A DNA stretch of 64,000 nt from the NCBI GenBank assembly GCA_000403495.2, contig KE159799.1:514937-578936 (forward strand), written 5' to 3'. The stretch's first letter is position 1. Each line of letters begins with the position of its first letter. A program made the translations under genes and the position numbers. The notes under the pieces are model-generated. The model worked only from the letters and a program-made list of their open reading frames with translations. It made no database searches and was not told the DNA's origin. Positions 22,336 to 39,378 of this stretch are shown here, in pieces. Origin of the DNA: Lachnospiraceae bacterium 10-1 (GTDB taxonomy: Bacteria; Bacillota; Clostridia; Lachnospirales; Lachnospiraceae).

Positions 22336-22367
22336 ATCACAAATCATTTATAAGAAAGGCTGTAAAA

Positions 22368-22625
22368 ATGGATTTTAAAACAGAACTTTTAAACGCAATC
22401 CAGATCATGGTAAACAGGAAACTTGACGACTACAAAGCAGACCGCACCTACAAATCTGTAGTAAAAAGCATTACCCAAAAAGGATACATAGTATTGGATG
22501 AAGCAGGCAGTGAACGTATTGTTCCCTGCTGCATTCCCAATCTAACGCTCAAGGCCGGACAAAACGTCTGGCTTAAAGAGCCTATGGGAGATCTGAAAGG
22601 TCTGCATATTTGCGGCATTTTATAA
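22368..22625 (+). CDS. small tail protein
   Basis: 85 residues. A helix (L-L-N-A-I-Q-I-M-V-N-R-K-L-D-D-Y) is followed by strand-rich V-K-S-I-T-Q-K-G-Y-I-V-L-D and N-L-T-L-K-A-G-Q-N-V-W-L-K-E-P, an SH3/OB-like small barrel. Small proteins with this V-W-L/V-K ending lie between tape measure and distal tail genes in Clostridia phages and are probably tail hub components. Function inferred from place only. Confidence 0.6.
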   Translation: MDFKTELLNAIQIMVNRKLDDYKADRTYKSVVKSITQKGYIVLDEAGSERIVPCCIPNLTLKAGQNVWLKEPMGDLKGLHICGIL

Positions 22626-22657
22626 CAAAAATTTACTGAAAAAGGAGGTGAGCAAAC

Positions 22658-23875: not shown

Positions 23876-23880
23876 GGCGC

Positions 23881-24810: not shown

Positions 24811-26636
24811 TGGCGGACCAAATTACCCAGGAAGATCTGGTTTTAGTACTTTCTCAATCCGCATCTCCACGGCTTGACCTGAAAATTGAAGTTTTAGACC
24901 AGAATCAAAAAATCATGGAAACCATTCATGGGGTGGTAACTGGCAGTATGTCTGTTTCCGGAGAATCGGAGGTAAGGCGTACTGCCAGCCTGACCGTCCA
25001 GCCAACCATAACCGAAAAACTAAAGCTTACCGAAGACAGTCTGCTTTGGCTTAATAAAGATATCCGTATTTTTATCGGCCTGTATAACTGCAGAACCAAA
25101 CAATATAAATATTATCCTTTAGGGTACTATGTCTACACTGATACCTCAGGCTCCTATGATGCTGTATCTAACAGTCTTTCCATTAACTGTGCCGATTTCA
25201 TGAAAAAACTGGATGGCACAAAAAACGGACAATTAGGCCCACTGCTGATCAGCTATCCGGCGTACAAAGAAAATACAGAAACAGGGGAAGTGATAGAATA
25301 CTATACCATACGCGGTGCAGTGATTGAAACTCTGGAAAATCTGGCACATATCACCAAGCATCGAATTGACGATATTGGCGAATACAAGGCTATGCCTGAA
25401 TACAATGACTCCTGGCAGCAATACCGGGAGGAAAATGAAACCTGGAATGCCATCCCTTTTGATCAGGAATTTTCTTCAGGATGCAGTGTGCTGTCCATTT
25501 TAACTGCCTTCCGGGATCTGTACCCTAACTATGAAATGTTCTTTGATATGGATACCAACACATTTATCTGCCAGCTTAAGCCTATGTGCTATGAGGATGA
25601 CCTATACCTGGACAACAGCTTTTTACAAAAGGTGTTGATCTCTGAAAGCACTTCCGTCGACATGACCTCGGTCAGAAACATTTGCGAAGTGTGGGGAAAG
25701 GTGATAGAAACTGACTTTTACAGTGAAGAATGCACCTATTCCAATCATACTTATTCTGCTTCTATTGCCGGATATGAAGACGGGTATTTTAACGGAGACG
25801 TAATTGCCTTAAAAATCCCGGCTGCAAATCAGGCAGGCTCACAGCTCAACATCAATCAGTTGGGAGCTGTTCCCATCTGCAGCGAGGCAGATGACACACC
25901 TATTGCAGAAAATGAACTAAAGTCCGGTAATGTTTATGCTTTTAAAATAAAAAGAAGCCGCCCTTCACAAGCTAAACCATCAGCTAAATCAACTGTTAAT
26001 TTAGCTGCTAATAAAGCAGGCGGGGGCAAACAGGATGTAATAAAAGCTTATCTACTGGGACAATGGCAGGTACATGCCCTGAATGTTTTAACAAACGGAA
26101 GAAAAAGTGGAAAACATGTATCTGACTCCCACGGACAGGAATATGAATTATACTCCAAAGAATATTTTCAAAAGTTCTATAACTGCCAAAGAGTAGATAT
26201 GACGATTATCCCCAATTCCCCTTTTGTGGTAGAAAAGCTTGGTGAAATACCTGACATCAAAACAGGAAGCGAATATGAAAATATTACTTCTGATGATCTG
26301 GCAGCAGACAGAGCCAAATGGGAAAACTGGAAAAACTGCCGGCTCACAGATCATATCACCATTACAACCGCTCTCCTGCCCTTCCTTGATGTAAACAAAA
26401 AAATATCCTATAAACCCAGTGATTCGGACAGGGAGTATCAATACATTATCAGCTCCATTTCCCATGATTTTTCAGGCTATACCACCACAATAACCATGTA
26501 CCGTTTTTATCCTTTGTATGAAACACTGCTTAAGGAAGCCGGTACTCATAAGGTTTTATCCGAATTCAGTCATGGGGTTTTAAGTAAGTACACCCATGAT
26601 GAACTTGCTGCAGTTATCAGCGAAGAAGAACTATAG
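24810..26636 (+). CDS. tail hub/baseplate protein (DUF5048-like)
   Basis: 608 residues. The N-terminus has S-P-R-L-D-L-K-I-E-V-L-D and S-G-E-S-E-V-R-R-T-A-S-L-T-V. Then comes Y-Y-P-L-G-Y-Y-V-Y-T-D, the Dit/Tal-type sequence in which an early-tail fold starts the hub. Later, L-S-I-N-C-A-D and I-L-T-A-F-R-D-L-Y-P-N-Y-E-M-F-F fit a gp27-like hub ring, and Y-I-I-S-S-I-S-H-D-F-S closes it. This is probably the tail hub to which the fibres bind. No peptidase motif seen. Confidence 0.7.
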   Translation: MADQITQEDLVLVLSQSASPRLDLKIEVLDQNQKIMETIHGVVTGSMSVSGESEVRRTASLTVQPTITEKLKLTEDSLLWLNKDIRIFIGLYNCRTKQYKYYPLGYYVYTDTSGSYDAVSNSLSINCADFMKKLDGTKNGQLGPLLISYPAYKENTETGEVIEYYTIRGAVIETLENLAHITKHRIDDIGEYKAMPEYNDSWQQYREENETWNAIPFDQEFSSGCSVLSILTAFRDLYPNYEMFFDMDTNTFICQLKPMCYEDDLYLDNSFLQKVLISESTSVDMTSVRNICEVWGKVIETDFYSEECTYSNHTYSASIAGYEDGYFNGDVIALKIPAANQAGSQLNINQLGAVPICSEADDTPIAENELKSGNVYAFKIKRSRPSQAKPSAKSTVNLAANKAGGGKQDVIKAYLLGQWQVHALNVLTNGRKSGKHVSDSHGQEYELYSKEYFQKFYNCQRVDMTIIPNSPFVVEKLGEIPDIKTGSEYENITSDDLAADRAKWENWKNCRLTDHITITTALLPFLDVNKKISYKPSDSDREYQYIISSISHDFSGYTTTITMYRFYPLYETLLKEAGTHKVLSEFSHGVLSKYTHDELAAVISEEEL

Positions 26637-26649
26637 AAAGGAGATCAAA

Positions 26650-27234
26650 GTGGCTACATACACGATTTATAAAAGTCTGGAAAAACCAGTCAGCACAGAG
26701 CGGTATAATGTGAACGTGGCAAATAAAAACTGTGATGTAATTGACGCAGAGCTTCATAAACTTGACTTAAAAAATGAAAGTCAGGATAACCTGCTGGCAA
26801 CAAAAGAAGCCCTAAACGCAAAAGCTGACCAGTCCCTGCTGGATGCTCATACCGGCAATACCGTCATCCATGTAAGCACATCCGATAAGGATAACTGGAA
26901 TGCTGCCAGTGTCCATGCGGATTCTGCCCACGCCCGCATAGATGCATCAAAGACAGAACCTTCAGAAATAAATGGCAACATTATGCTAAATGGCATTGAA
27001 ACCACTGTTTACACCCATCCCTCCGGCCCCAATCCCCATAATGTCTCAAAAGAAGACATTGGACTTGGTAATGTGGAAAATAAAAATTCCGCTGCTATAA
27101 GAGACGAATTAACAAAGGAAAATGTAATTGCCGCATTGGGTTACACGCCCTCTGTAACAGATGGCGGCGGCATCTCTTACTCCGATTCAGAACCAGACGT
27201 ACTATCTTCCGGTATGACCTGGATCGGCAATTAA
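26650..27234 (+). CDS. tail fibre / baseplate attachment protein
   Basis: 194 residues from GTG 26650 (AAAGGAG upstream). It opens V-A-T-Y-T-I-Y-K-S-L-E-K-P. Coiled segments A-L-N-A-K-A-D-Q-S and H-V-S-T-S-D-K-D-N-W-N are followed by the fibre repeat H-P-S-G-P-N-P-H-N-V-S-K-E-D-I-G-L-G-N-V, shared by many tail fibres. It ends S-G-M-T-W-I-G-N. It is likely the shaft between hub and receptor-binding protein. Confidence 0.7.
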   Translation: MATYTIYKSLEKPVSTERYNVNVANKNCDVIDAELHKLDLKNESQDNLLATKEALNAKADQSLLDAHTGNTVIHVSTSDKDNWNAASVHADSAHARIDASKTEPSEINGNIMLNGIETTVYTHPSGPNPHNVSKEDIGLGNVENKNSAAIRDELTKENVIAALGYTPSVTDGGGISYSDSEPDVLSSGMTWIGN

Positions 27235-27242
27235 TTATGAAA

Positions 27243-27262
27243 AAAACGAACTTGTTCGTTTT
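27243..27262. other. perfect palindrome between tail genes
   Basis: AAAACGAAC/GTTCGTTTT with a two-base centre, followed by TTGC. It probably folds as a weak terminator or attenuator between the fibre shaft gene and the following small gene. Confidence 0.45.
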
Positions 27263-27337
27263 GCAAATCTTATGCCTGTACAATACGCAAAGCTTGTATG
27301 AAAGTTTGCACGGCAATGGCAGAAATGGAGGAAAATT

Positions 27338-27667
27338 ATGACAGAATTTTCAAACGAATTTAGCAGCTTTCCTTCCGGGAAGATTACAAAACACAACTTT
27401 AAAAATATTGACGACAGCATTGCATCCGTAATTAATCAGATCAATTCCCTGCGCAGTCAGGGATTATACAATCAGGCTGCCCGCATTATTGAGAATAACT
27501 CTGATGTGTTATCTCAATATATTGCTGACGCTTCCACTTTCAGAACCTGGGAGGAAGAAATATATAATACCCAGATCTATGCAAAGCAGCAACAGCAATC
27601 CATCTATTTTGATGACCAGGAGCCTGACTGCATTGATGGAGACGTCTGGCTTGGAGGTGATGCTTAG
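27338..27667 (+). CDS. small tail protein with C-terminal D-x-W-L-G-G motif
   Basis: 109 residues, ATG preceded by AATGGAGGAAAATT. Helical body (N-F-K-N-I-D-D-S-I-A-S-V-I-N-Q-I-N-S-L) with repeated Q-A-A-R-I-I-E-N-N-S. It ends C-I-D-G-D-V-W-L-G-G-D-A, like the 405-aa tail protein. It overlaps the next gene by one base. Possibly an assembly adaptor or chaperone for the receptor-binding protein; unproven. Confidence 0.6.
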   Translation: MTEFSNEFSSFPSGKITKHNFKNIDDSIASVINQINSLRSQGLYNQAARIIENNSDVLSQYIADASTFRTWEEEIYNTQIYAKQQQQSIYFDDQEPDCIDGDVWLGGDA

Positions 27668-27987
27668 TGTTATGTAACCCAGTATCTTACTACCCGGAAA
27701 AAATTGATGAAATGACTTTTTTTCAGGACAATAACATTGAAAATGCGGAAATCATCCACACCTATAACAATTTAATTTCACAAGGCAGCTACAACACCGC
27801 AAATGATTTTATCAGCAAACAGGATGGTATTTATGGCTTTTTTGCTGATTTTCTTAACCTCATTGAAAACCGTATCTACAATCTTCAGGCTTATCTTCTG
27901 CAAAAGCCTCCGAAAAAGCAGCCCTTTGCTACTTTTGATGAGGAAAAAGAACTTCCTGCTATAGATGTAGATACTATTTGGATTTAA
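27667..27987 (+). CDS. small tail protein, paralogue of the preceding gene
   Basis: 106 residues from GTG 27667, overlapping the preceding stop (TAG/GTG). A helical body with A-E-I-I-H-T-Y-N-N-L-I-S-Q-G-S-Y-N-T-A matches the arrangement of its upstream neighbour (S-Q-G-L-Y-N-Q-A), so the pair looks like a tandem duplication. It ends D-V-D-T-I-W-I. Role probably shared with the neighbour. Confidence 0.6.
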   Translation: MLCNPVSYYPEKIDEMTFFQDNNIENAEIIHTYNNLISQGSYNTANDFISKQDGIYGFFADFLNLIENRIYNLQAYLLQKPPKKQPFATFDEEKELPAIDVDTIWI

Positions 27988-28057
27988 ATATGATTGTATA
28001 CAGTCCTTGGAGAGGGACGATAAACACTACTACTTTATCATACAAGGAGAATAGAAA

Positions 28058-28687
28058 ATGGCAGTTAATGAAACAATTGTAACTGGTAGAAAATTTAGAA
28101 AATGCATTGATGCAGCAACCAAAGCATGGCAGAGGATATCCTTCTGGACCAAGTCATCTGACGTAGAATTTGAGGACGGAAAAAATGCAGAGACAAAATT
28201 GGGCGCTATTGACGGAATTACGGATAGTTTAGAGGATACTTCATCACGTATGGCCGCAAGTGCAAAGGCAGTTAGTACTTTAAATAATAATTTAGGCGGA
28301 TGCCAGCTTGTGCAGGAAGGAAATGATTTCTATATCGTAGGTGCTGATTCAGTGCGAAAAAAATTGGGTAGTGCATTATATCATCTTGGTAAAACAAAGG
28401 CCAACATACAGACGGGGAAACCATCTGCTACATCAACGACTTTTAATGTGTCTGCAATAAGCGGATATCAAAATTTTACCATAGATAATTTTATTGCATC
28501 AGCAAGTGGATATGGATTATGTGTAGCAGGCGCTGGATATTATGCATCTGTTTCAAAGTCCTACAATGCCAGCACTGGTGTACTTACCATAAATACACCT
28601 GCGACCTATTTTGCACAAATTAATGGTTATACAATGTTGTTAGGTATAGATGTCTATTTATGCACTGGTGATATTTTAAAATTATAA
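28058..28687 (+). CDS. phage receptor-binding protein with switchable C-terminus
   Basis: 209 residues (CAAGGAGA upstream). Residues 1-74 are constant: S-F-W-T-K-S-S-D-V-E-F-E-D-G-K-N-A-E-T-K joins to a coiled-coil S-A-K-A-V-S-T. The recombination site then begins at Leu75 as L-N-N-N-L-G-G. Residues 82-209 are the currently expressed cassette (C-Q-L-V-Q-E-G-N-D-F-Y-I...V-S-A-I-S-G-Y-Q-N), a beta-rich tip likely to touch the receptor. Its stop is only 8 nt from the convergent silent cassette A. Confidence 0.85.
   Translation: MAVNETIVTGRKFRKCIDAATKAWQRISFWTKSSDVEFEDGKNAETKLGAIDGITDSLEDTSSRMAASAKAVSTLNNNLGGCQLVQEGNDFYIVGADSVRKKLGSALYHLGKTKANIQTGKPSATSTTFNVSAISGYQNFTIDNFIASASGYGLCVAGAGYYASVSKSYNASTGVLTINTPATYFAQINGYTMLLGIDVYLCTGDILKL
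28281..28301 (+). repeat. recombination site S1 (expressed copy)
   Basis: 21-bp TAAATAATAATTTAGGCGGAT inside the receptor-binding gene, coding for L-N-N-N-L-G-G. It contains TAAAT/ATTTA inverted arms around AATA. Site S2 carries the same 21 bases in opposite orientation. Confidence 0.85.
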
Positions 28688-28695
28688 TTCCTGTT

Positions 28696-29076
28696 CTAAA
28701 ACATACCATCAGGATATATAAGTGTACCGGCACTGCTGTTAATATATTCTGGCCCGGCTTTAGTAGTTATTGTTTGTCCGGATTTTAAATTAAACTGGTA
28801 TAAAAACGACTGTTGACCATTATAAGACTGATATCCAATACGTTTACTACTACCGGTAGTCGTAAAAATTATACCATCATAGGTTCCGGTAGATGCGTAT
28901 GACCAAAAAAACAAATAGGCAACTCCGTCTCTTATGGCTTTATATGTACCTAAATTTACAGTTTTATAGGTATAGGTGCTACTAAAAGGGATCACTGTAT
29001 CAGCACCCGGCTTTCTGTATCCTGGCTTTCCGTCTGCAGTTTCACCGAAGGAATATCCGCCTAAATTATTATTTAG
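28696..29076 (-). other. silent C-terminal cassette A
   Basis: Open frame without its own start. From site S2 it reads L-N-N-N-L-G-G-Y-S-F-G-E-T-A-D-G-K, then P-G-Y-R-K-P-G-A-D-T-V and a beta-rich tip ending T-L-I-Y-P-D-G-M-F. It lies convergent to the expressed cassette. Inversion between S1 and S2 would fuse it in frame to the constant N-terminus. A translation start at an internal ATG (28995) is less likely than expression by inversion. Confidence 0.8.
29055..29075 (-). repeat. recombination site S2
   Basis: Exact 21-bp copy of S1 in inverted orientation, in frame with cassette A. Inversion of the 0.8-kb S1-S2 segment exchanges the two tips. Confidence 0.85.
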
Positions 29077-29095
29077 CCATATATCACTTTTGAAA

Positions 29096-29136
29096 CAAAA
29101 AGAAGAACAGAAATAATCATTCTGTTCTTCTTTTTG
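29096..29136. terminator. bidirectional terminator after the recombinase gene
   Basis: 17-bp perfect stem CAAAAAGAAGAACAGAA/TTCTGTTCTTCTTTTTG with a 7-nt loop. T-runs on both strands let it end both recombinase and tail transcripts. Confidence 0.8.
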
Positions 29137-29152
29137 TATATTATATACTCAT

Positions 29153-30172
29153 TTACCCAGCATATATATTATGTATATATGATATTTTATCATATGATTT
29201 TGCCAAATAATGTTTTTGAGTAGTTTCAAATGAAGAATGTCCTAAAATGTCTTGAATAATTGTCGGATCTACTCCTTTTTTATTTAAATCACTTGCTAAC
29301 CATCGTCTAAAACAATGTACTGTAATATCTGGCAGCCCAATTCTGGTTCCTATCTTTTTTATTATTTGATTTATTGTGTCTTTACTTATTTTTCCATATG
29401 GTTTTTTTAATGAACAAAAAAGGTATGAACTAACATTCTGCCCTCTCTCGAACAAATATTCCTGCAAATGTTTTTTACATCTGATAGAAAATGGAACAAT
29501 TCTGTCTTTTCCTCCCTTTCCATGTATAATCATTGTCTTTTTATCCCAATCCACTTCTGATAATAATATATTGCTCACTTCACTTACTCTTAGACCAGTT
29601 GAGATAAGCAAATCAATTATTGCCAGCTCACGCTTATTGATACATGCATCTCTCATGGACTCTATTTCATAGTCTGTATAAAATCTCTTATATTTTAAGT
29701 CTTCTTTAATTCTAGGAATTTTCTTCACTGGGTTTTTTGCTATATACTCTTCATCTTCCATAAACTGAAAAAACACATTAAGATTTCTCCGACAATTATT
29801 CGCTGTAGTTTTACTAACAGATTTCTCATAATATAAAAGATATCTTCGTATGTCATCTGTCGTAATATTAGCCAAATCCTTATTATGATAAAAATCAACC
29901 AACGAAGAAATGCTATAAGTGTACTGTTCTAAAGAACTATCCTTTATTCCTCCCATTTTTTTGCATCCAATAAAATTTTTAATAATAAGAGAATTATTAC
30001 TTGCATCAACAGAAAGCATATTTTCAGAAGATATAAAATCAATGTTAGAAAAAACATTAGTAAGAATGTTAATAGATTGCGTCATTTGAATATTGTCAAA
30101 ATGCATTTCTTCCCCAATCATCCTTACAGCTACCTTAAATAAATAATCTTTGTCAATTTTTTTACCCAACAT
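29153..30172 (-). CDS. tyrosine recombinase of the receptor-binding shufflon
   Basis: 339 residues from ATG 30172, which has AAGGAGG about 10 nt upstream; the longer frame to 30,238 would start inside the promoter. The SAM-like core-binding domain spans about 75-150. Catalytic residues are visible: R195 (S-T-G-L-R-V-S-E), K219 (H-G-K-G-G-K-D-R), H286/R289 (H-C-F-R-R), H312 (G-H-S-S) and Y322 (K-H-Y). Its place among four inverted/direct 21-bp sites and cassette ends argues for DNA inversion rather than integration, like Rci of R64. Expression is probably SOS-controlled through the LexA box in its promoter. Confidence 0.88.
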   Translation of the reverse strand: MLGKKIDKDYLFKVAVRMIGEEMHFDNIQMTQSINILTNVFSNIDFISSENMLSVDASNNSLIIKNFIGCKKMGGIKDSSLEQYTYSISSLVDFYHNKDLANITTDDIRRYLLYYEKSVSKTTANNCRRNLNVFFQFMEDEEYIAKNPVKKIPRIKEDLKYKRFYTDYEIESMRDACINKRELAIIDLLISTGLRVSEVSNILLSEVDWDKKTMIIHGKGGKDRIVPFSIRCKKHLQEYLFERGQNVSSYLFCSLKKPYGKISKDTINQIIKKIGTRIGLPDITVHCFRRWLASDLNKKGVDPTIIQDILGHSSFETTQKHYLAKSYDKISYIHNIYAG

Positions 30173-30209
30173 ATATAATTGCCTCCTTACATAAGTGTGT
30201 GTAAAACTT

Positions 30210-30238
30210 ATTATATATCGAACATTTGTTCGATTCAA
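30210..30238 (-). promoter_or_regulatory. recombinase promoter with consensus LexA box
   Basis: Minus strand TTGAAT (30233-30238), 17-bp spacer, TATAAT (30210-30215). The spacer holds CGAACAAATGTTCG (30219-30232), an exact match to the Gram-positive LexA/DinR box CGAAC-N4-GTTCG. LexA bound there would block RNA polymerase; RecA-driven LexA cleavage would release it. Confidence 0.85.
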
Positions 30239-30291
30239 GTTTTTTTCAACATATTTATGACTTTTTATTAATTAATATCTTTGTTAACAAG

Positions 30292-30663
30292 TTAAATAAT
30301 AATTTAGACGGCAAAGCAAATGGTGCATTTGTTGTTTTAACTGGTACTACACATACAGTTGCCGGACAACAAACAAGCCAAAATTATCCAAGCGGATTTA
30401 ATCAAAATAATTGTGCAATTGCAGGTGTTATGGTAAAACTTGGGCAAAATTGGTATTTTGGTAATTACAGTTCGGGTTATACTTACATAAATGCTCAAGT
30501 TATACTTAGTAGCCAGGTTGGCATTATACCAGCCTCTGGATGGACAAACTGTCAATATAAAATAGTTTTTTCTATAAAAAGGTTGATTATCTCAAAAAGC
30601 CTTGATTTACGGGCATACAAGCAGGATTTCAAGCTAAAAATACTACCAATTTACTACTTTTGA
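30292..30663 (+). other. silent C-terminal cassette B (3-prime end altered by the inserted element)
   Basis: From S3 it reads L-N-N-N-L-D-G-K-A-N-G-A-F-V-V-L-T-G-T, later Y-P-S-G-F-N-Q-N-N-C-A-I-A and W-T-N-C-Q-Y-K-I-V-F-S-I-K, a beta-rich tip like the others. No start codon of its own. After about codon 97 the frame enters the left end of the mobilizable element and stops at 30,661-30,663, so its last residues are not original. Confidence 0.75.
30293..30313 (+). repeat. recombination site S3
   Basis: TAAATAATAATTTAGACGGCA, matching S1 at 18 of 21 positions, with coding sense L-N-N-N-L-D-G. Same orientation as S1, at the head of cassette B. Confidence 0.75.
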
Positions 30664-30664
30664 G
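30641..30664. repeat. left arm-type integrase repeats
   Basis: TACTAC (30641-30646) followed by TTACTACTTTTGAG (30651-30664). The same TTACTACTTTTGAG recurs near the right end, consistent with Int N-terminal arm binding (DR2-like). Confidence 0.55.
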
Positions 30665-31270
30665 GGAAAGAGCCTTGATATGTTACCCGGAACCCTGCAA
30701 GCCCAAAGACCAGATATCTGATAAAAAGCCACAATGAAAAGGCAAAAACAAAACGTAGCGTGTCAAGGGGCAAGCGGAGCGATACGCCGTAGGGCAACCC
30801 TTGACACAGCGGACGCAGGCCAAAGAAGAATGGAAAAAGAGGGAATGAAAAGACGCATTATCTTTCATTCCCTCTTGATTGTGTTTTTTGCTGTTTTCCG
30901 TTAATATAACCCCTTGCTAAATTTATACAGTGGCGGTATAATAAAAAAACGAGATAGATAATAAAAGGCAGGATGTAGGGAACGCCAATTCCCTACACCC
31001 CTATGCAGGAGAAGCGACCTCCCACACAGCATATTATGCGCCAATTCAAGTATAGCGAATTTTCCACACTATTTCAAGTGGAAAACCAGCGTGTATTTGG
31101 ATTTGTGGTGCTGTATTTTCAGCGGTGTAGGAAAGAAAAATCCTGCACCGCTTTCTTATTGTTTATCTCGGCAGATTGGCAGAGGGGCATAAACCTATGC
31201 CCTCTCTGCTGAACTGTTCGGGATTTTTCGCTTGTTGTTTTAAAATTTACAAAAAGAGAGGTAATCATGT
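30665..31270. other. non-coding left-end region of the mobilizable element
   Basis: No convincing gene. It holds a 10-bp inverted repeat GTGTCAAGGG/CCCTTGACAC (30760-30769 with 30798-30807), a candidate origin of transfer or replication. A 14-bp terminator stem AAGAGGGAATGAAA/TTTCATTCCCTCTT lies at 30837-30876 with a TTTTTT run. A promoter TTGCTA (30914-30919), 17 bp, TATAAT (30937-30942) reads right. Further hairpins follow at about 30974-30998, 31124-31156 and 31178-31212, forming a structured leader before the secreted-protein gene. Confidence 0.6.
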
Positions 31271-32299
31271 ATGAAAAAAACTGTTTTAATGAAAGTGTTA
31301 GCCGGAGTTTTGTCTGTCGGCATAACAGCGGCTGGTGCGGTAGGTCTGAATATGTCTTCTACGGCTGACGTTTCCGCAGACAATGAGCCTGTTGCAGAGG
31401 CATCTGCTGACACAGAGACCGAAGATTCTGTGCCGGTGGATGACGACAAACAAGGCGAAAGGGCAGAGAAAGAGAACACGCCTGATGTCCAGTCTGATGA
31501 AGATAAGCAGCTTCTTCTGGCATCCGCAGACACGGAAGACGGCAAGCAGACAGAGGTTCCTGTACAGTCCGTTAAGGTATCCGACAGCAAAAAAAACGCT
31601 ACAGCTGCTAACTCCGTGGTACAGTCAACCACAAAGCCCGACAGCACTGCTGTGGCGGGCAATAACATAACGGCTTCTGAAAAGACACAGACTGCAAACA
31701 CTGATACGACAGCAGTTGAGAAAGAAGCCGCTGGAAATACAGCCGCTGAGAAAGAAGGGGCTGAAAAGGCAGAGGCTGAAAGACTTGCAGCAGAGCAGGC
31801 AAAGAAAGAAGCTGCAGAGAAAGAGGCAGCTGAAAAGGCAGCAGCTGAGAAAGCAGCCGCTGAAAAGGCAGAGGCTGAGAGACTTGCAGCTGAAAAAGCA
31901 GCAGCTGAGAAAGCAGCCGCTGAAAAGGCAGCCGCTGAAAAGGCAGCAGCAGAGAAAGCAGCAGCAGAGAAAGCAGCAGCAGAGCAGGCAGCAAGAGAAG
32001 AAGCAGCAAGACTTGAGGCTGAAAGACTTGCAGCTGAACAGGCAGAGGCTGAAAGACTTGCAGCTGAAAAGGCTGAGGCTGAAAGACTTGAGGCTGAGCA
32101 GGCAGCACAAAAGGATAAAGACAGTATCGTGGTTCAGGGTGGAGAAGATACGCTTGTACTGGGTGGCGAGCAGCAGAAAGTGGCTCACTATCACTGCAAC
32201 TGCGGTCATTCCACAACCGATTATGATGCATTGAAACAGCATATGAAACAGCATGCTCTTAACGGTGACAGAAACAGCTACTGCACAACCTACGAATAA
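31271..32299 (+). CDS. secreted Ala/Glu/Lys-repeat protein with C-terminal Cys/His finger
   Basis: 342 residues. A signal peptide (M-K-K-T-V-L-M-K-V-L-A-G-V-L-S) runs to about residue 33. A Thr/Asp-rich region is followed by about 120 residues of A-A-E-K/A-E-R-L heptads (about 160-280), TolA-like and probably a long helix. The C-terminus V-A-H-Y-H-C-N-C-G-H...H-M-K-Q-H is a C2H2-type finger. There is no LPxTG anchor. Such proteins are cargo of gut Firmicutes mobile elements; function unknown. The repeat DNA gives long but spurious frames on the other strand. Confidence 0.75.
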   Translation: MKKTVLMKVLAGVLSVGITAAGAVGLNMSSTADVSADNEPVAEASADTETEDSVPVDDDKQGERAEKENTPDVQSDEDKQLLLASADTEDGKQTEVPVQSVKVSDSKKNATAANSVVQSTTKPDSTAVAGNNITASEKTQTANTDTTAVEKEAAGNTAAEKEGAEKAEAERLAAEQAKKEAAEKEAAEKAAAEKAAAEKAEAERLAAEKAAAEKAAAEKAAAEKAAAEKAAAEKAAAEQAAREEAARLEAERLAAEQAEAERLAAEKAEAERLEAEQAAQKDKDSIVVQGGEDTLVLGGEQQKVAHYHCNCGHSTTDYDALKQHMKQHALNGDRNSYCTTYE

Positions 32300-32465
32300 A
32301 TACCATAAGAGTGACAGCAGAAACATCCTGTTCCTGCTGTTGCTTTTTTGGGGAATTTTCTTTTTCCGGCCCACATACGCGGGCCAGTCTTCCCGGGGAC
32401 AATCCCCCGTCCCTTCTAAAACATATGTATACAGAAAAATAAATTTTCTACAAAGGAGACAAGAT

Positions 32466-33107
32466 ATGAACAAAAAAGAAATTTTAGACTGTTTATCTGA
32501 AAAGAAAAGACTAACGGCGCCTGTTGCCACAGCAGAAAATAACGTGAGAGCCGCCGAGAGCAATTATGAAAAAGCACGTAAAAAATGGAAATGGGGGATA
32601 GTTATATCAATAGTCTTTTTGATTCTTTATATTCTGTTTTTTCTGTCAGGTGACAGGGGGCTATTTTCCTTTGACGAACACCATGTTTTGCAGGCCGGTG
32701 GTCTTGGCGGGATTATTCTTTTTGGGGGAATTTTATTTCTTTTACTATATGTAAAAAGCCTGCTTTATACAAATCCGGCAGAAAAGAAGCTGGTAGAAGC
32801 ACAGAATATTCTCAGACAGGAAAAAAGTAAGCCGGATTATATAAACGGTTCAAAAAATTTCCCTGCGAAATTTTACAACTATTCTGACCTTTTTCGCCTG
32901 TGGAATATTATTAATGAAGGAAGAGCCGAAAGTTTAAAAGAAGCGTATAACCTGTTAGAAACGCAACAGTTCCAGCAAGACCAGATGGCAATTCAGGAAG
33001 ATATCAGACGCTTGCAGCAGGAAACAGCAACTACATCAAAGATAAATGCCGCCGCTTCTGTAGTAACGGCATATAACACCGCCAAAACAGCAAGAAGATT
33101 AAGATGA
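32466..33107 (+). CDS. membrane protein of the mobilizable element
   Basis: 213 residues from ATG 32466 (AAAGGAGACAAGAT upstream). A helical N-terminus (E-K-K-R-L-T-A-P-V-A-T-A-E-N-N-V) is followed by two transmembrane segments near 52-70 and 83-105. Then comes a soluble domain with F-Y-N-Y-S-D-L-F-R-L-W-N and a C-terminal coiled coil. It lies just after the secreted repeat protein and is probably co-transcribed. No family recognised. Confidence 0.65.
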   Translation: MNKKEILDCLSEKKRLTAPVATAENNVRAAESNYEKARKKWKWGIVISIVFLILYILFFLSGDRGLFSFDEHHVLQAGGLGGIILFGGILFLLLYVKSLLYTNPAEKKLVEAQNILRQEKSKPDYINGSKNFPAKFYNYSDLFRLWNIINEGRAESLKEAYNLLETQQFQQDQMAIQEDIRRLQQETATTSKINAAASVVTAYNTAKTARRLR

Positions 33108-33574
33108 TAAGCTGAAAGCGGTAAAAGGTTTATTCAATTTTTTATTTCTTCTTACTATAAAAGAGAGGGGTTTTTCACAATCCACTCTCTTTTACATTTC
33201 CTTTATCAATCCACTATATTTCAACCTTAATCATTTTTATATTATATGAATGACTCAGACATACGTCTGAGTCACCACGGGGATATCCCCGTTCCCCTTT
33301 TTTCTTTTGATAAAAAATTACTTCTCAATTTTCCTCTGTCTACCTTCCCATCTTCTTAACCTCTATCTAATGTAATGTTAACATTTTAGGGAAAGTTGTC
33401 AAGCGATTTGTCCAAAATTTAATAAAAATTTAATAAATTCCATCTTGAAATGATGGTTTCGGTAGTAATGAACACTACCGCCCCGCAGTTGCAAATGCGG
33501 AAAACGTCACTGACAAATCAGGGTACCCGCCTATAAGAGAAAGTATTATGATGCGCATCATATAGAGTATCTAT
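33108..33574. other. intergenic region with stacked hairpins
   Basis: No gene seen. It contains an AAAAGAGAG/CTCTCTTTT terminator at about 33160-33194, a perfect GACTCAGAC/GTCTGAGTC hairpin (33252-33273) followed by CGGGGATATCCCCG and a T-run, a CGGTAGT/ACTACCG stem (33461-33482) and the palindrome ATGATGCGCATCAT just before the XRE gene, which could be its operator. Confidence 0.5.
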
Positions 33575-33973
33575 ATGATTAAAGAACGATTAAGACAACA
33601 GATGTTTTTACACCGTGAAAAACTGGGCCTAAAACAGCGTGAAGTTGCCGAGTTACTTGGCAAGTCTGAAAAGACTTATCAACGGCTGGAATCCACTGGC
33701 CGTGGCCTGTCTGATATTTTTGACATCCTCGAAATCTTTCAGGTATTGCATTTTTCCACTACAGAAATTGTTAACGTTCTGGGGTTCCCGCCGCTCACAT
33801 TAAGTGAAGTGACGGAACTTTATCAGGACGAAGAAATCCTGAAAAGCATACGAGAAAACGCTATATGCTCCACTATCCGTCAGACGTGTGGAAAAATGGA
33901 AACAAGTACAATAGAACGTCTGATTTTTACCCTGATGAAAGAACAATGCCAAAGGAAAGGGAACTCTGCCTGA
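33575..33973 (+). CDS. XRE-family regulator of the element
   Basis: 132 residues. Helix-turn-helix near 12-40: L-G-L-K-Q-R-E-V-A-E-L-L-G-K-S-E-K-T-Y-Q, then R-L-E-S-T-G-R-G. The C-terminal part is helical with an E-I-V-N-V-L-G-F-P-P-L segment. It is the first gene of the transfer/replication block, likely controlling it. The ribosome site is weak, which may keep expression low. Confidence 0.75.
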   Translation: MIKERLRQQMFLHREKLGLKQREVAELLGKSEKTYQRLESTGRGLSDIFDILEIFQVLHFSTTEIVNVLGFPPLTLSEVTELYQDEEILKSIRENAICSTIRQTCGKMETSTIERLIFTLMKEQCQRKGNSA

Positions 33974-34100
33974 GTTTCCCTTCCTCCATGCGGGGTTCAG
34001 GCGATAAATGCCTTATACTGCGAAGTGGGAAAAAAAGCGGGGTATGCTACCATATCAATGTAACCTAAAACAAATTCAATTTAGAAGGGAGACAAAAGAA

Positions 34101-34454
34101 ATGGCATTAAAGAAATTAAACCAGTTTTTAAGATTTGACTACGAGGAATTTTCCAAAGACAAGGTGCTTCAGGTCACTGGCATAAGTGAATGGACGGATT
34201 TCAACACCAAAGCCCACATGGGAATCAAACTTGAAACGACTATTGTCAAGGACAACACCCTGTATAAGCAGAAAGACGGGGAAAACGTCACGAACCGTTA
34301 TGAGAAGCTGACCATAAAGGTGCGTAAGGACGTAAACATCCCGATGAATGCCTTTGTGGTGCCTGTCAATGCGGCCGCTACCGTGTACGGGGATTACCGC
34401 AACCAGCTGTCAATAACTGCTGACGATGTCCGGGTACTTACACCGAACAAGTAA
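34101..34454 (+). CDS. DUF961 protein (Tn916 Orf22/23-like, YdcP family)
   Basis: 117 residues from ATG 34101 (AGAAGGGAGACAAAAGAA upstream). It has V-L-Q-V-T-G-I-S-E-W-T-D-F, K-L-E-T-T-I-V-K-D-N and Y-E-K-L-T-I-K-V-R-K-D, the beta-rich DUF961 core always found just before the FtsK-like gene in Tn916-family elements. Relatives such as HelP in ICEBs1 are helicase processivity factors in other families; this one's activity is unproven. Confidence 0.85.
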   Translation: MALKKLNQFLRFDYEEFSKDKVLQVTGISEWTDFNTKAHMGIKLETTIVKDNTLYKQKDGENVTNRYEKLTIKVRKDVNIPMNAFVVPVNAAATVYGDYRNQLSITADDVRVLTPNK

Positions 34455-34473
34455 GTGAAGGGAGTGAACCATT

Positions 34474-35832
34474 ATGAACCATTATAAGAAGGGAGTCAGG
34501 TATTTTTCCCCCGCCGCTTGGATTCTTGCGGCGGGGGGATTTCTCCTCTTTTACTCAGCCTTTTTAGGACTGATGAAATATCTGAACCATTCGGACGTGT
34601 TCAGCCTGAACCTCTATCTCGTGAAAGCCTCTGCCATATCCATGGCAATGGCGGCTGCCCTGCTCACGCTGTCGCTTGCCCTGCATATTAAGGGCGGTGC
34701 CGAAAAGCAGATAGAACACCGTGTAAAAAAGAGGCTGTATGACCCAGTGTATGGGAACCCGCTCAGCTTCCGGGAAAGGGAACTGCTCCCGCCCGTCAGG
34801 TGCCGGAGGCTCAACAGCACAACATTTGAAATCTCTGTCAGGGCTGTTTCATGCACAGTAGAAAATTTACTGAACATTGCGCCGGTCATATCGTCTTCCC
34901 TGAACGGGAAATACGGGAAGTATGCGGTTGTCAGCTGTGAAGCGGACGAAGCCTTTAACCGGGTGGCTTACCGGATTGAAGACGTGCTGGCCGACAGGAG
35001 CCTGACGGTGAATTCCGTGGAAGGGCTGAAATCGCCGGACAAAACGAAAATCCCGATTGACATGGAAACCTTTATCGACCTGAAAACCTCCGGCAGTATC
35101 CTGGTCGCCGGGAAGACAAGGAGCGGGAAGACCACGGGCACCATTACAATCCTGCTTCCGCTCTTACTGTGCGGACGTGATAAGTATGATTCCAATATCT
35201 TCATCATTGACCCGAAATTGGCGGAACTGTCAATGCTCCCCCATGTTGTGGCCGTAAATCCCAACGGGGATGTCGAACCAGTCATAGCGTTGATGGAAGA
35301 ATTTGAATCTACGAGAAAGACCCGGCAGGCAGTATTGAACCGACGTTCACAGGAGACCGGTAATGCCGTGAAATGGTGGGATGCCGGGATGCACCCCAGC
35401 ATCCTGTTCATTGATGAATATGTGGCATTAAAAAGCCTTTTCCCAAAGTCTGCCAGAGGGAACGGGGGATTCAATATATCTGATTTTGAAAGTTTACTGA
35501 AACGCATTATAACCATGGGGGCGTCTGCCGGGTGCTTTGTCATCATCTCCATTGCGGAAGCGTCAGTGGAGGAAGGCGGCCTGCCGTCCATGTTAAAGTC
35601 AGCAATGACAACCAAAATCCTGTTCAAGCCTACGGTGGAGGAAGCCCGGCTTATCTGGAACAGTGAACGGCTAAGGACCTTTAATGCGGGGCGTGCATAT
35701 AGAGCCGGAGATTGCCTGTTTTCCTCCACGGACGGCATACACGACACGCCAGGGTATCTGCATTTCCCGAACATGGAGTTTGAAGTTTATGCGGAACTGG
35801 GAAGGCTTCTGGAGGAATACTACGCTTCGTAA
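34474..35832 (+). CDS. FtsK/SpoIIIE-like ATPase (Tn916 Orf21-like coupling protein)
   Basis: 452 residues. Two transmembrane helices near 14-34 and 52-70 are followed by the motor domain. Walker A G-K-T-R-S-G-K-T is at 213-220, I-I-D-P-K-L-A-E-L at 244-252 and Walker B I-L-F-I-D-E at 310-315. The protein would bring nicked element DNA to a helper conjugation pore. Immediate linkage to the DUF961 and Rep genes is the Tn916 order. Confidence 0.88.
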   Translation: MNHYKKGVRYFSPAAWILAAGGFLLFYSAFLGLMKYLNHSDVFSLNLYLVKASAISMAMAAALLTLSLALHIKGGAEKQIEHRVKKRLYDPVYGNPLSFRERELLPPVRCRRLNSTTFEISVRAVSCTVENLLNIAPVISSSLNGKYGKYAVVSCEADEAFNRVAYRIEDVLADRSLTVNSVEGLKSPDKTKIPIDMETFIDLKTSGSILVAGKTRSGKTTGTITILLPLLLCGRDKYDSNIFIIDPKLAELSMLPHVVAVNPNGDVEPVIALMEEFESTRKTRQAVLNRRSQETGNAVKWWDAGMHPSILFIDEYVALKSLFPKSARGNGGFNISDFESLLKRIITMGASAGCFVIISIAEASVEEGGLPSMLKSAMTTKILFKPTVEEARLIWNSERLRTFNAGRAYRAGDCLFSSTDGIHDTPGYLHFPNMEFEVYAELGRLLEEYYAS

Positions 35833-36004
35833 GAATGAAGATTCACCACGATTCCGGCCTGCCGGAATCGTGGTGTCAGTGTCAGTTTCTAAAAAAACTG
35901 TTGTTTTCTGGCGGTGGGCTTGTTATACCGCCAGAAAACCAAAGTGTCAGAGTGTCAGGAACGTTCGGAAACACAGGAAAATCAGGGGAAGGAGTGACAC
36001 CGGA

Positions 36005-37234
36005 ATGTCAGACAAAGAAAACTGCCGTGTCAGGTCTAAAAACATGATGTACACACAGCAGATAAGGCACCTGCCAGTCGGAAGCACAGACCAGCTAGTC
36101 AGCCGGGTGAAAAAGATGGCACCGAAGAGATATGCACTGATTGTGCATGACAGTGATGTCAATGAACAGGGGGAACCCGCAGAAGACCATGTACACGTGA
36201 TGCTGTCCTTTGAGAATGCCCGCTCCATTAACAGCATTGCAAAGGAACTGGGAGACGAGCCGCAGTCCATTGAAATGTGGAAAGGAAAAGCGGAAAACGG
36301 CTATTCTTACCTTATCCACGCCACAAAAGATTCTGGAAACAAATACCAGTACCCCCCGTCAAGAGTCATAGCGAATTTCAATTATCAGGAAGAGATAAAG
36401 AGAATCACGGAAGAGGTTGAGCGAAGCAGGCAGACGGCAAACAGTAAAATCCTGCTGGATTCCCTCTATAAAGGGGAAATCTCGAAAGAGGAACTGGAAA
36501 AACGGTTAAGCGGCAGCCAGTACGGGAGAATGAGACGCCAGATTGAGGATGTGTGGTGCAAGCACCTGCAATTTCAGGCGGCTAAATGGCGGGAAGAAAT
36601 GAAAAAGAGTGGGAAACGGATAAAAGTCATATGGATTAGCGGAGAAGCGGGAACAGGAAAAACAAGTTTAGCCAAAGAATACGCCGAAAAGTCAGGCCGC
36701 CCCTACTTCATCACGGGAAGCAGCCGGGATATTTTCCAGAATTACTCCGGCGAGCATACCATAATCCTTGACGAGTTTCGGGCTGACATGATGAAATACC
36801 CGGATTTGCTGCGCATACTTGACCCTTTCGGTAGTCAGGTCATGGCACCGTCCAGATACAATGACAAGCCTCTGGCCTGTGACCTGATTCTCATTACATC
36901 ACCATATAATCCGGTAGAATTTTACCGGCAGCTGTTTAGCCGGGCTCCCGCAAATTTTGTTGACAGTCTGGAACAGTTATTGAGAAGAATTTCACTGACC
37001 ATTGAAATGGACGCATCCCATATCAGGGCGGTTGAATATGACAAAGAGGCAGAGGCTTACCGGGCTGTGGATAACGCCGAAAAGGAAAACAGATATTCCA
37101 GACATTACCGGGAACAGGACAGCACCGCCAGCAACCCCAAAGAACTGTTTGAATCCATGTTCCGTGAGGCTCCATGCGTGGAACCCGGCAGTCTTGCTTC
37201 TGTAGGGAAGGAGGGAGATAATGAACAGGACTGA
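36005..37234 (+). CDS. replication initiator/relaxase: HUH nuclease fused to SF3 helicase
   Basis: 409 residues from ATG 36005 (AAGGAGTGACACC upstream; a longer frame overlaps the FtsK gene). N-terminal HUH motif D-H-V-H-V-M-L-S with His62/His64; Y-S-Y-L-I-H-A-T-K carries the likely nicking Tyr (100 or 102). The C-terminal helicase has Walker A G-E-A-G-T-G-K-T at 213-220 and Walker B I-I-L-D-E at 253-257. This CRESS-like build occurs in plasmid Reps and replaces the usual Tn916 MobT relaxase. It probably both replicates and mobilises the excised circle. Confidence 0.85.
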
Positions 37235-37424
37235 TGTTCCCATCTGGGAAAAGTACACGCTTACCATTGAGGAAGCGTCCAAGTATTTCCGTATCGGGGA
37301 AAACAAGCTGCGCAAACTTGCAGGGGAAAACCCCACGGCAGACTGGATATTCTTAAACGGCAACCGCATCCAGATTAAGCGGAAACAGTTTGAAAAAATC
37401 ATTGACACACTGGACGCAATTTAG
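37221..37424 (+). CDS. xis: excisionase (Tn916 Xis family)
   Basis: 67 residues, overlapping the rep end by 14 nt; GGAGGGAGATA precedes the ATG. Winged-helix MerR-like signature: [16 protein letters not shown], then N-K-L-R-K-L and an [10 protein letters not shown] end. It bends the element's ends so Int excises rather than integrates. Placed just before int as in Tn916. Confidence 0.9.
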
Positions 37425-37440
37425 CCAAAAACAGTGAAAA

Positions 37441-37485
37441 AGAGCCCTGAATGTGCTATAATAGATATAAGCATATCAGGGCTCT
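37441..37485 (+). promoter_or_regulatory. hairpin with internal -10 between xis and int
   Basis: A perfect inverted repeat AGAGCCCTGA (37441-37450) / TCAGGGCTCT (37476-37485) followed by TTT acts as a terminator for the upstream transcript. The loop contains TGTGCTATAAT, an extended -10 (TATAAT 37457-37462), so int may have its own start inside the loop. Confidence 0.55.
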
Positions 37486-37511
37486 TTCCGACACGGAAAG
37501 GAGCAGAAACA

Positions 37512-38708
37512 ATGTCGGAAAAAAGACGTGATAATCAAAACCGCATTTTGCGTTCAGGAGAGAGCCAGAGAAAAGACGGGAGATATGCTTACAAATATAC
37601 CGATATTTTGGGCAAAGTGAGATTTGTCTATGCATGGAAGCTGGTACCCACGGACAAAACCCCGGCCGGGAAGCGAGACGGCATATCCCTCCGGGAAAAG
37701 GAAAAAGAGATACGGAAAGACTTTGAAGACGGGATAGACACAGTTGGAAAGAAAATGACCGTCTGCGACCTTTACGCAAAGCAGATACGGCACCACGGGA
37801 ACGTAAGGCATAACACCACAAAGGGGCGTGAACGGCTGATGAAGCTGCTGGAAGCGGATAAGCTCGGTTCCTGCCCTATTGACAGCGTGAAGCCGTCTGA
37901 TGCGAAAGAATGGGCGCTGCGCATGAAAGAAAAGGGGATGTCCTACAAGACCATAAGCAATGACAAGCGTTCCTTAAAAGCTGCGTTCTATACGGCGATA
38001 CAGGACGACTGCATCAGGAAGAACCCCTTTGACTTCCAGCTAAACACCGTGATTAAGGATGACACGGAGCCGAAAGTACCCCTCACAGCAAAGCAGGAAG
38101 AAAGCCTTTTATCCTTTATGCAAAGTGACAGCGTCTACCGGAAATACCGTGACGAGGTTATCATACTGCTGGGAACGGGGCTTCGGGTTTCCGAACTCTG
38201 CGGGCTGACCGAAACCGACCTTGACTTTGAAGAACGGGTAATCCATGTAGACCATCAGCTTTTACGGAGTGCAGAGACCGGGTACTACATAGAGAAGCCA
38301 AAAACACAGAGCGGCATCAGGCAGATTCCAATGAGTAAAAAAGTATATGAAGCGTTGGGGCGTGTGTTGAAGAACCGCAGGGGAGCGAAAACGGCCACGG
38401 TTGACGGTTACAGCAATTTCCTTTTCCTTAACCGGAACGGTTTCCCGAAAACGGCGGCCAGCTATGACAGTATGTTCCGGGGGCTTGCGGAGAAGTACAA
38501 CAAAAGCCATGAGGAAGCGTTACCCAGAGTAATGACCCCGCACACCTTACGCCATACGTTCTGTACCAACTTGGCCAATGCAGGCATGAACCCCAAAGCG
38601 TTACAGTATATCATGGGGCATTCCAACATCACTATGACACTGAACTATTACGCACACGCAACATTCGCTTCCGCAAGGGCTGAAATGGAAAGGCTGATTG
38701 CAGTATAG
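37512..38708 (+). CDS. int: tyrosine integrase of the mobilizable element (Tn916 family)
   Basis: 398 residues from ATG 37512 (GAAAGGAGCAGAAACA upstream). An N-terminal arm-binding domain (R-D-N-Q-N-R-I-L-R-S-G-E-S-Q-R-K-D-G-R-Y) is followed by a core-binding domain. Catalytic residues: R225 (G-L-R-V-S-E), K264, H344/R347 (H-T-L-R-H-T-F), H370 (G-H-S-N-I) and Y380 (N-Y-Y-A-H). It carries out integration and, with Xis, excision. The arm-type repeats at both element ends are its expected N-domain sites. Confidence 0.93.
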   Translation: MSEKRRDNQNRILRSGESQRKDGRYAYKYTDILGKVRFVYAWKLVPTDKTPAGKRDGISLREKEKEIRKDFEDGIDTVGKKMTVCDLYAKQIRHHGNVRHNTTKGRERLMKLLEADKLGSCPIDSVKPSDAKEWALRMKEKGMSYKTISNDKRSLKAAFYTAIQDDCIRKNPFDFQLNTVIKDDTEPKVPLTAKQEESLLSFMQSDSVYRKYRDEVIILLGTGLRVSELCGLTETDLDFEERVIHVDHQLLRSAETGYYIEKPKTQSGIRQIPMSKKVYEALGRVLKNRRGAKTATVDGYSNFLFLNRNGFPKTAASYDSMFRGLAEKYNKSHEEALPRVMTPHTLRHTFCTNLANAGMNPKALQYIMGHSNITMTLNYYAHATFASARAEMERLIAV

Positions 38709-39075
38709 CCGCAGAAGGCTTTACTACTTTTTTACTACTTTTGAGAGGGAAAACCTGAAAAGTTATGAGGGTATATGTGAACTTCTCCCCATATCTAAGA
38801 TGCCGGAAAAGCCCAAAAATACGGGCTATACCGATATATAAGAACTTCTAAAGAGATAATCTAAAATCACCTATAATTTTATATAAATATCTTTGATATT
38901 TTACTGTGTTATGTTAAAGTAAGCTCCGTATAAATCAGCAAAATAGGGAAAATTGTAGCTGTATATCCTGCTGTTCTATATGGAATTTGTTTTGATCCAA
39001 CCTGTATACAGGTAACTTTTATTGAAGAAATAAAGGGTTGAATTTACTTTTGCATTAGGCCAATAATATTTTAAC
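38709..39075. other. right end of the element and spacer before cassette C
   Basis: Two tandem arm-type repeats lie at 38721-38730 and 38732-38745 (TTACTACTTT; second copy extends to TTTTGAG). GAGATAATC (38853-38861) is the inverted partner of the left-end GATTATCTC. From about 38,873 to 39,075 an A/T-rich stretch without a gene separates the element from cassette C. Confidence 0.55.
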
Positions 39076-39378
39076 TTATAGCTGCTTGACATTCGTAACT
39101 TCAATATATACAGGAACCGCAGACCAATTTCCACCAACACCATTTAACTTGCGCACAGTAGATTTACTTTTTAGTCTAAAATTCTCAAAAATAAATTTAA
39201 CTTCCATCAAAGAATCTGCATACTTTGAATTGCCTGTATTTAATTGTGTTACTTGAATTACAGTAAATTCAAAATTCCCACTACTAAAAGGGAATACTGT
39301 ATCAGCACCTGGCTTTCTGTATCCTGGCTTCCCGTCAGCAGTTTCACCGAAGGAATAGCCTCCTAAATTATTATTTAA
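39076..39378 (-). other. silent C-terminal cassette C
   Basis: From site S4 it reads L-N-N-N-L-G-G-Y-S-F-G-E-T-A-D-G-K, P-G-Y-R-K-P-G-A-D-T-V-F-P-F-S, then a new tip (F-E-F-T-V-I-Q-V-T-Q...W-S-A-V-P-V-Y-I-E-V-T) ending K-Q-L. The first 28 or so residues are nearly the same as cassette A; the remainder differs. It has no start codon and is in frame with the recombination site. Confidence 0.78.
39357..39377 (-). repeat. recombination site S4
   Basis: TAAATAATAATTTAGGAGGCT on the minus strand; the first 16 bases match S1 exactly. Inverted relative to S1 and S3. Confidence 0.78.

What the first reader, a model, noticed from the sequence alone, without database searches (positions are those of the whole stretch)
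28058..39378. Shufflon-like switch on a prophage receptor-binding protein, run by a tyrosine recombinase
Four copies of a site built on TAAATAATAATTTAG lie at 28281, 29055, 30293 and 39357. All encode L-N-N-N-L-(G/D)-G in frame. S1 is inside the expressed receptor-binding gene; S2, S3 and S4 head silent cassettes A, B and C, which lack start codons. S1/S2 and S3/S4 are inverted pairs with convergent cassettes, and a tyrosine recombinase gene sits between the pairs. Inversions would give at least four alternative fibre tips. Phage tail switching is classically done by serine invertases (Gin, Cin) on larger genes; a short A/T-rich site with a tyrosine enzyme recalls Rci of plasmid R64 but in a Clostridia prophage.
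Basis: partly seen in the sequence, partly recalled or inferred. Interest (0 to 1): 0.9.

Follow-up and report, generated by a model that had tools for sequence, protein, structure and literature searches.

The report
Self-shuffling phage-tail tip genes
A Clostridia-type bacterium carries a phage-tail gene cluster whose receptor-touching tip can probably be swapped among several spare versions by a dedicated DNA-flipping enzyme, perhaps switched on by DNA damage, and relatives show that such swaps have happened in nature.

Summary
In detail: four exact copies of TAAATAATAATTTAG (none in 100 shuffles) form two inverted pairs, each heading a fibre-tip frame, with a tyrosine recombinase between them. 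Comparisons support an inversion (shufflon) system. (1) A second species has the same element; its 99%-identical fibre N-terminus is joined exactly at the site to another tip, and a homologue of the tip expressed here lies silent downstream. (2) Near-identical viral contigs with a related recombinase switch partners at their sites. (3) Three relatives have similar arrays with the recombinase in the other orientation. A LexA-type box lies in the recombinase promoter and at the element's start, suggesting SOS control. In this strain a ~41-kb prophage splits the tape-measure gene and a Tn916-type element splits tip B. Tyrosine-recombinase shufflons on prophage receptor-binding proteins are already described in Actinobacteria (Rin: Bifidobacterium 2018, Eggerthella 2022), so this is a new variant of a known kind. 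No inversion has been seen within one culture.

The parts
28058..28687 (+). expressed tail-fibre/receptor-binding gene: constant N-terminus (28058-28280) plus variable tip
   Evidence: ORF; N-terminus conserved in relatives while tips differ
28281..28301 (+). site S1 (TAAATAATAATTTAGGCGGAT)
28280..28687 (+). expressed tip cassette E (135 aa)
   Evidence: 84% nt homologue lies silent in L052
28696..29076 (-). silent tip cassette A (126 aa), no start codon in frame upstream
29055..29075 (-). site S2
29095..29137 (.). hairpin with perfect 18-bp arms between cassette A and the recombinase, terminator-like
   Evidence: I10
29153..30172 (-). tyrosine recombinase gene, Xer-like, catalytic motifs present; the ORF tool extends it to 30238
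30219..30232 (.). LexA-type box between a -35-like TTGAAT and a -10-like TATAAT of the recombinase promoter (hexamers read by eye)
30293..30311 (+). site S3
30292..30590 (+). silent tip cassette B, first part, interrupted by the mobile element (end approximate)
30591..38885 (+). Tn916-type mobile element (FtsK-like 34474, Rep 35684, integrase 37434-38708); right end ~38880-38890, left end not resolved
39076..39378 (-). silent tip cassette C (100 aa), no start codon in frame upstream
39359..39378 (-). site S4
21876..22335 (+). 3' end of the tail element's tape-measure-like gene, downstream of the nested prophage
22368..27987 (+). tail genes of the element, including DUF5048 tail protein 24810-26636

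Best explanation
A shufflon on a tail-tip fibre gene. The adjacent Xer-like tyrosine recombinase recombines inverted ~15-21-bp sites that lie at the same codon of every cassette (L-N-N-N-L), so inversion replaces the fibre's C-terminal tip in frame while the N-terminus and its expression signals stay fixed. Four sites give 16 arrangements and four alternative tips, B being interrupted here. The carrier is most likely a headless, SPbeta-derived tail element (tailocin-like). A LexA-type box in the recombinase promoter and at the element's start suggests that tip shuffling and particle production are both de-repressed by DNA damage. Shown by sequence: sites, frames, recombinase, site-exact partner switching between related genomes, boxes, absence of head genes among the proteins scanned. 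Inferred: that this recombinase is the enzyme, that LexA binds, that particles form, and that the tips set target choice.
For: Sites above chance and in frame with open tips. L052, another species of the genus with the same right chromosomal flank: 95-98% identity through S1, 33% in the next 60 bp; the window's expressed tip (84% nt) is silent downstream behind its own site. L033, L034 and L036 (recombinases 77, 77, 73% identical) have 4, 4 and 7 sites at the homologous codons; L034 and L036 have their own core sequence, L033 the window's core with variants; in all three the recombinase faces the other way relative to the fibre. Viral contigs: L040's silent slot equals, inverted, the 106-bp head of L039's expressed tip (100%), fused within the site to L039's recombinase-side flank; L087, from the metagenome of L040, joins another tip at the site. 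L041 and L089 are 100% identical over 6475 bp and part just past the site. LexA-type boxes. Tail tube. No terminase, portal or capsid among 34 proteins (15 own, 10 G015, 9 G063) scanned with PHROGs.
Against: No inversion seen in one strain: the identical IMG/VR record L038, compared over window 21156-38235, has the same orientation. L052 contains runs of N of unknown nature, no recombinase of this family was found in its genome G018 (88% complete, E<=1e-30), and its silent tip has an apparent frameshift. L040 matches L039's expressed tip for only 106 bp, so that pair is not one clean inversion; leader-level gene conversion is possible. L089 could be a chimeric assembly. In this strain the tape-measure gene and cassette B are interrupted. 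The LexA pattern is not enriched genome-wide over its backwards control (5 rows against 7); the argument rests on position and conservation. Tube and fibre models are of low confidence (pLDDT 56 and 52).
Confidence: 0.86

Rival explanations
1. Tip diversity arises by homologous exchange through conserved flanks and shared leaders; the tyrosine recombinase is an unrelated integrase and the repeats are conserved coding sequence for a hinge.
For: A and C share a 97-bp leader; L033 cassettes share a 106-nt arm; the hinge peptide LNxNL is conserved; genus-wide homologous exchange of tail-fibre loci is reported for Pectobacterium tailocins (PMC13195805, passages).
Against: Copies head start-less or nearly start-less tips in both orientations around the recombinase in four loci (window, L033, L034, L036). 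Partner switching falls within or at the edge of the site in L052, L040 and L041/L089. The nested prophage and the mobile element have their own integrases.
Confidence: 0.09
2. The carrier is a true prophage, degraded or with head genes elsewhere, and the switch changes phage host range.
For: The same recombinase family and sites occur in viral contigs; polymerase, tube and tail protein have relatives in complete phages.
Against: No terminase, portal or capsid among 34 proteins scanned in three loci; by eye, the ORF maps of own, G015, G035 and G063 show tail and lysis genes between chromosomal-looking genes and no integrase of their own. Not every ORF was scanned.
Confidence: 0.27
3. The switch is a fossil: this locus no longer inverts and only its ancestors did.
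For: Tape measure split by a prophage, cassette B split by a mobile element, recombinase not found in L052/G018.
Against: Recombinase ORF intact with catalytic motifs and a promoter-like stretch; S1 and S2 still identical over 21 nt.
Confidence: 0.2

Closest known systems
Rin shufflon, Bifidobacterium dnaJ2 prophages (PMC6109161: passages and the shufflon section read in full)
   Same: Constant receptor-binding-protein N-terminus, several short tips headed by a short crossover site, XerD-like tyrosine recombinase, inversions seen between prophages and in virion and genome reads
   Different: 11-bp asymmetric site TTCCCTAACCC, recombinase at one end of the array, prophages of Actinobacteria that can be induced; here near-palindromic A/T sites, recombinase inside the array, headless-looking tail element in Clostridia, LexA-type box
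Rin shufflon, Eggerthella lenta prophage clade 1 (PMC8778435: passages)
   Same: Tyrosine recombinase next to small tip genes with short repeats that also lie inside the constant gene
   Different: 8-bp asymmetric repeat, actinobacterial prophages
Rci / R64 plasmid shufflon (recalled; cited in PMC5903667 and PMC2647930, passages)
   Same: Tyrosine recombinase (recalled), short repeats, multi-cassette inversion of a C-terminal tip
   Different: Acts on a pilus adhesin of a conjugative plasmid
Ein / carotovoricin, Pectobacterium (PMC13195805: passages, citing Nguyen 2001)
   Same: Tail-fibre inversion in a tailocin, conserved N-terminal half, altered target range
   Different: Invertase Ein (serine family by recall); Gram-negative plant pathogen
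Gin, Cin, Min (as described in PMC6109161)
   Same: Tail-fibre switching; Min has several cassettes
   Different: Serine recombinases
SPbeta/SPR-type phages
   Same: Homologous YonO-family polymerase and tail tube
   Different: Complete phages of about 125-137 kb among the rows listed; here a tail module only

Membership tests
multi-cassette DNA inversion system (shufflon) | several sites in both orientations heading partial genes, one joined to a constant expressed part | tested here: met
multi-cassette DNA inversion system (shufflon) | alternative arrangements with breakpoints at the sites | tested here: met
   between related genomes only: L052, L039/L040/L087, L041/L089
multi-cassette DNA inversion system (shufflon) | arrangements coexist in one clone and depend on the recombinase | not testable with these tools
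   no reads or cultures
tyrosine recombinase, Xer-like | Phage_integrase domain with catalytic residues | tested here: met
   PF00589 E 1.1e-33; motifs GLRVSE, GKGGKDR, HCFRRW, LGH...Y; XerC-like, XerA and XerD top the solved relatives
tyrosine recombinase, Xer-like | no N-terminal arm-binding domain | tested here: inconclusive
   no Pfam hit before the SAM-like domain (88-164 of the 360-residue frame), but an unassigned N-terminal stretch remains
Rin | recombinase homologous to Rin of Bb423phi1 | not tested
   Rin sequence not fetched; tblastn of phage records gave 6 hits, none named Bifidobacterium
tailocin | tail and lysis genes without head or packaging genes | tested here: met
   34 proteins of 3 loci, small ORFs and own tape-measure N-part not scanned; phrog_2729, filed under head and packaging, is the tail tube; phrog_6123 and phrog_2163, also filed there, hit two G015 proteins weakly
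tailocin | particles released that kill other strains | not testable with these tools
   needs culture
LexA/SOS regulon | box like that of lexA in the promoter | tested here: met
   regex matched the recombinase upstream of window, L035, L036 (3 of 5); L033 and L034 one base off by eye; lexA-yneA promoter has boxes of the same form
LexA/SOS regulon | LexA binding and induction by DNA damage | not testable with these tools
   needs experiment

The most novel reading that the evidence does not exclude
An SOS-triggered, self-diversifying siphophage-type tailocin: DNA damage de-represses both the tail-particle genes (with their own sigma-like factor and YonO-family polymerase) and a dedicated tyrosine invertase, so a clone about to lyse releases a mixture of tail particles with different tips. 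The same recombinase family also serves phages, where in one case (L089) the site lies in two convergent fibre genes, so that tips could be exchanged between two fibres.
Probability: 0.4. Interest if true: 0.78.

Novelty: new variant of a known kind. Interest (0 to 1): 0.6.

Why it matters
Tyrosine-recombinase shufflons on tail receptor-binding proteins are described in two groups of actinobacterial prophages (Rin). This adds a Clostridia lineage with several loci, natural junctions that confine the crossover to a few bases, a headless-looking carrier and a predicted link to the SOS response. It makes testable whether bacteria diversify the targeting of tail particles at the moment of release, and how such a recombinase avoids deleting its own gene: the fused site of L052 may be the scar of such a deletion.

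Tried and rejected
Alternative orientation in the identical IMG/VR record: same orientation over window 21156-38235, probably the same genome. More relatives by family: 1 of 397 genomes (own only) at E<=1e-75; in the rows shown at most 5 candidates were scored per genome. At E<=1e-30, 11 of 60 relatives match including own; the other ten genomes have 30-37% identical recombinases, not followed. Phage records: 6 hits at 30-35%, not followed. Fibre: no Pfam or PHROG hit and no significant solved relative. The fibre model was too poor to search. Other own-genome matches: C11 is a tail gene of another locus with a similar tip leader, C20 looks unrelated. Fibre N-terminus in viral contigs: only the own record. 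Of the 79 loci I compared only L087 and L089 (L088 and L092 are contigs already held; L090 and L091 end before the site; the rest, at most 55% identical, were not examined).

Considered and rejected: chance sites; the recombinase being the integrase of the prophage (own serine integrase at 20275-21855) or of the mobile element (own Tn916-type integrase at 37434).

Literature: searches, judged by titles and abstract starts. None listed a tyrosine-recombinase shufflon in a Clostridia tail element, or an SOS-controlled tail-fibre invertase; most subscription papers are not held. Read: PMC6109161 passages and one section; passages of PMC13195805, PMC5903667, PMC8778435, PMC8042965 and PMC2647930. 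PMC2647930 reports an Rci-like integrase gene in a Pseudomonas prophage. Others: listing only.
Full report
Observation. Each heads a frame L-N-N-N-L-(G/D)-G into a 100-135-residue tip; S1 is preceded by an ATG gene start, S2 and S4 by none, S3 by one TTG. Between the pairs lies a tyrosine recombinase (PF00589, 1.1e-33) with the usual catalytic motifs and a likely start at 30172, behind AGGAGG. Solved relatives found with a nine-sequence profile include XerC-like, XerA, XerD and XerH.

What surrounds it. The tail genes (about 22.3-28.7 kb) belong to an element that begins outside the window. By ORF map and family scans it holds sigma-like and GmrSD_N-like genes on the other strand (weak hits, scanned in G035), an RdRP/YonO-family polymerase, a protein of phrog_4051 (in G063 weakly like tail assembly chaperones), tail tube, holin, GH25 endolysin and tape measure. 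The polymerase motif DxDGD is present in own, G015 and G063, not in G035. A prophage of about 41 kb, on the minus strand, with a terminase-like ORF (by eye) and a serine integrase at 20275-21855, splits the tape-measure gene; in L052 that gene is continuous, giving the empty site. The right flank is chromosomal (TatD by eye). A Tn916-type mobile element with its own integrase, Rep and FtsK-like genes sits in cassette B; homology to its closest relatives ends at about 38880-38890, its left end is not resolved.

Headless element. I scanned 15 own, 10 G015 and 9 G063 proteins with PHROGs and found no terminase, portal or capsid. Three families filed under head and packaging were hit. phrog_2729 is the tail tube: the profile hits tail tube proteins at 4e-9, and Foldseek with a low-confidence model gives SPR and other tail tubes as best hits. 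phrog_6123 (5.7e-5) and phrog_2163 (4.5e-6) are weak hits of two G015 proteins. Small ORFs and the own tape-measure N-part were not scanned. Of six own tail proteins in the window, three had no PHROG hit, one an unknown-function family and two tail-related hits. A siphophage-type tailocin is likely, not proven.

Natural rearrangements. (a) A genus search with the fibre N-terminus matched in 6 of 37 genomes. L052 (G018) is the same element beside the same right-hand chromosomal gene. It matches the window at 95-98% through the site and at 33% in the next 60 bp, so it carries another tip; the window's expressed tip (84% nt; dN 0.13, dS 0.54 over 111 codons) lies silent downstream. It also has one palindromic site shared head to head by two tips, CCGCCTAAATTATAATTTAGGCGG. 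A wrong-orientation recombination of an S2-type with an S3-type site would leave this after deleting the recombinase, and G018 has no such recombinase at E<=1e-30; this is inference, and L052 contains runs of N. Within the stretches fetched, G015 and G030 have a fibre without these tips, G035 has an L033-like tip at the same codon, and none of the three has the recombinase; G030 has a 33% relative on another contig. (b) L033, L034 and L036 carry 4, 4 and 7 sites (LNNNL/LNNKL/VNNNL, LNNQL, LNSNL), and the recombinase lies on the fibre's strand, opposite to the window. In these three, the window and L052 I listed 23 site-frame pairs; 22 open frames of 90 residues or more, one of L052 only 23; five non-first sites besides S3 also have some possible start codon upstream. 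L035 is cut by its contig end; L037 matches only the C-terminal part of the recombinase. (c) Viral contigs with a 48-51% identical recombinase have two sites (L040 showed none there because its first half is missing). L029 is 100% identical to L039 over 5294 bp. L040 (99.3% on the recombinase side) has in its silent slot, inverted, the 106 bp that head L039's expressed tip, fused inside TTAAATTTGTG to L039's recombinase-side flank; beyond 106 bp the tip differs. L087, from the same metagenome as L040, is 97.9% identical to L039 over 4016 bp and switches tip at the site. L041 and L089 are 100% identical over 6475 bp and part just past the site, into the recombinase in one and a second, convergent fibre gene in the other; a chimeric assembly is not excluded.

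Regulation. The recombinase upstream reads TTGAAT, then CGAACAAATGTTCG inside a 17-bp spacer, then TATAAT (hexamers by eye). In the whole assembly CGAACNNNNGTTYG occurs at four places: here, at the start of the tail element, before what looks like a radical-SAM repair gene next to rarA, and apparently inside a coding stretch; the backwards control has 7 rows against 5, so the pattern alone is not enriched. The lexA-yneA promoter has boxes of this form. They also lie upstream of the recombinase in L035 and L036 by regex, and one base off in L034 and L033 by eye (the -35 of L033 is unclear), and at the element starts of G015, G035 and G063. The names yneA, rarA and TatD and the LexA consensus are recalled.

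Mechanism. Inversion between opposite sites gives 16 arrangements; each tip is in the expressed slot in 4 of 16, and the recombinase faces each way in 8. The natural junctions place the crossover inside the conserved core.

Novelty. [quoted passage not shown] Carotovoricin shows fibre inversion in a tailocin. What seems new, within the searches named under Tried and rejected, is the combination: tyrosine recombinase, headless-looking SPbeta-type tail, Clostridia, SOS-type box. That the host is of Lachnospiraceae or near is inferred from the titles of related records only.

Noticed in passing
window 1-21876 and about 19 kb upstream (L006/L007): A prophage of about 41 kb with a large serine integrase is inserted in the tape-measure gene of the tail element; L052 shows the empty site.
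   Followed up: partly
L006:7504-9942: YonO/RdRP-family single-subunit RNA polymerase heads the tail element; homologues head the same element in G015, G035 and G063, with a sigma-like and a GmrSD_N-like gene on the other strand in most of them.
   Followed up: partly
L089:4001-7266: Two convergent fibre genes with homologous N-terminal linkers both carry the recombination site, so tips could be exchanged between two fibres.
   Followed up: partly
L052:12126-12149: Perfectly palindromic site shared head to head by two tips, possibly the scar of a deletion that removed the recombinase.
   Followed up: partly
L034:2578-3318, L033:5076-5795, L035:378-1151: A ~250-aa gene (no Pfam hit for the L034 copy) lies between the first cassette pair and the recombinase in relatives but is not seen in the window; possibly a fibre chaperone.
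   Followed up: no
L008:4628-5176 (own genome, C11): A short tail gene of another locus carries a tip leader resembling cassettes A and C (GKPGY...GADTVIPFSS).
   Followed up: no
window 31271-32299: Mobile-element cargo: 342-aa protein with a long AEKAAAEK-type repeat.
   Followed up: no
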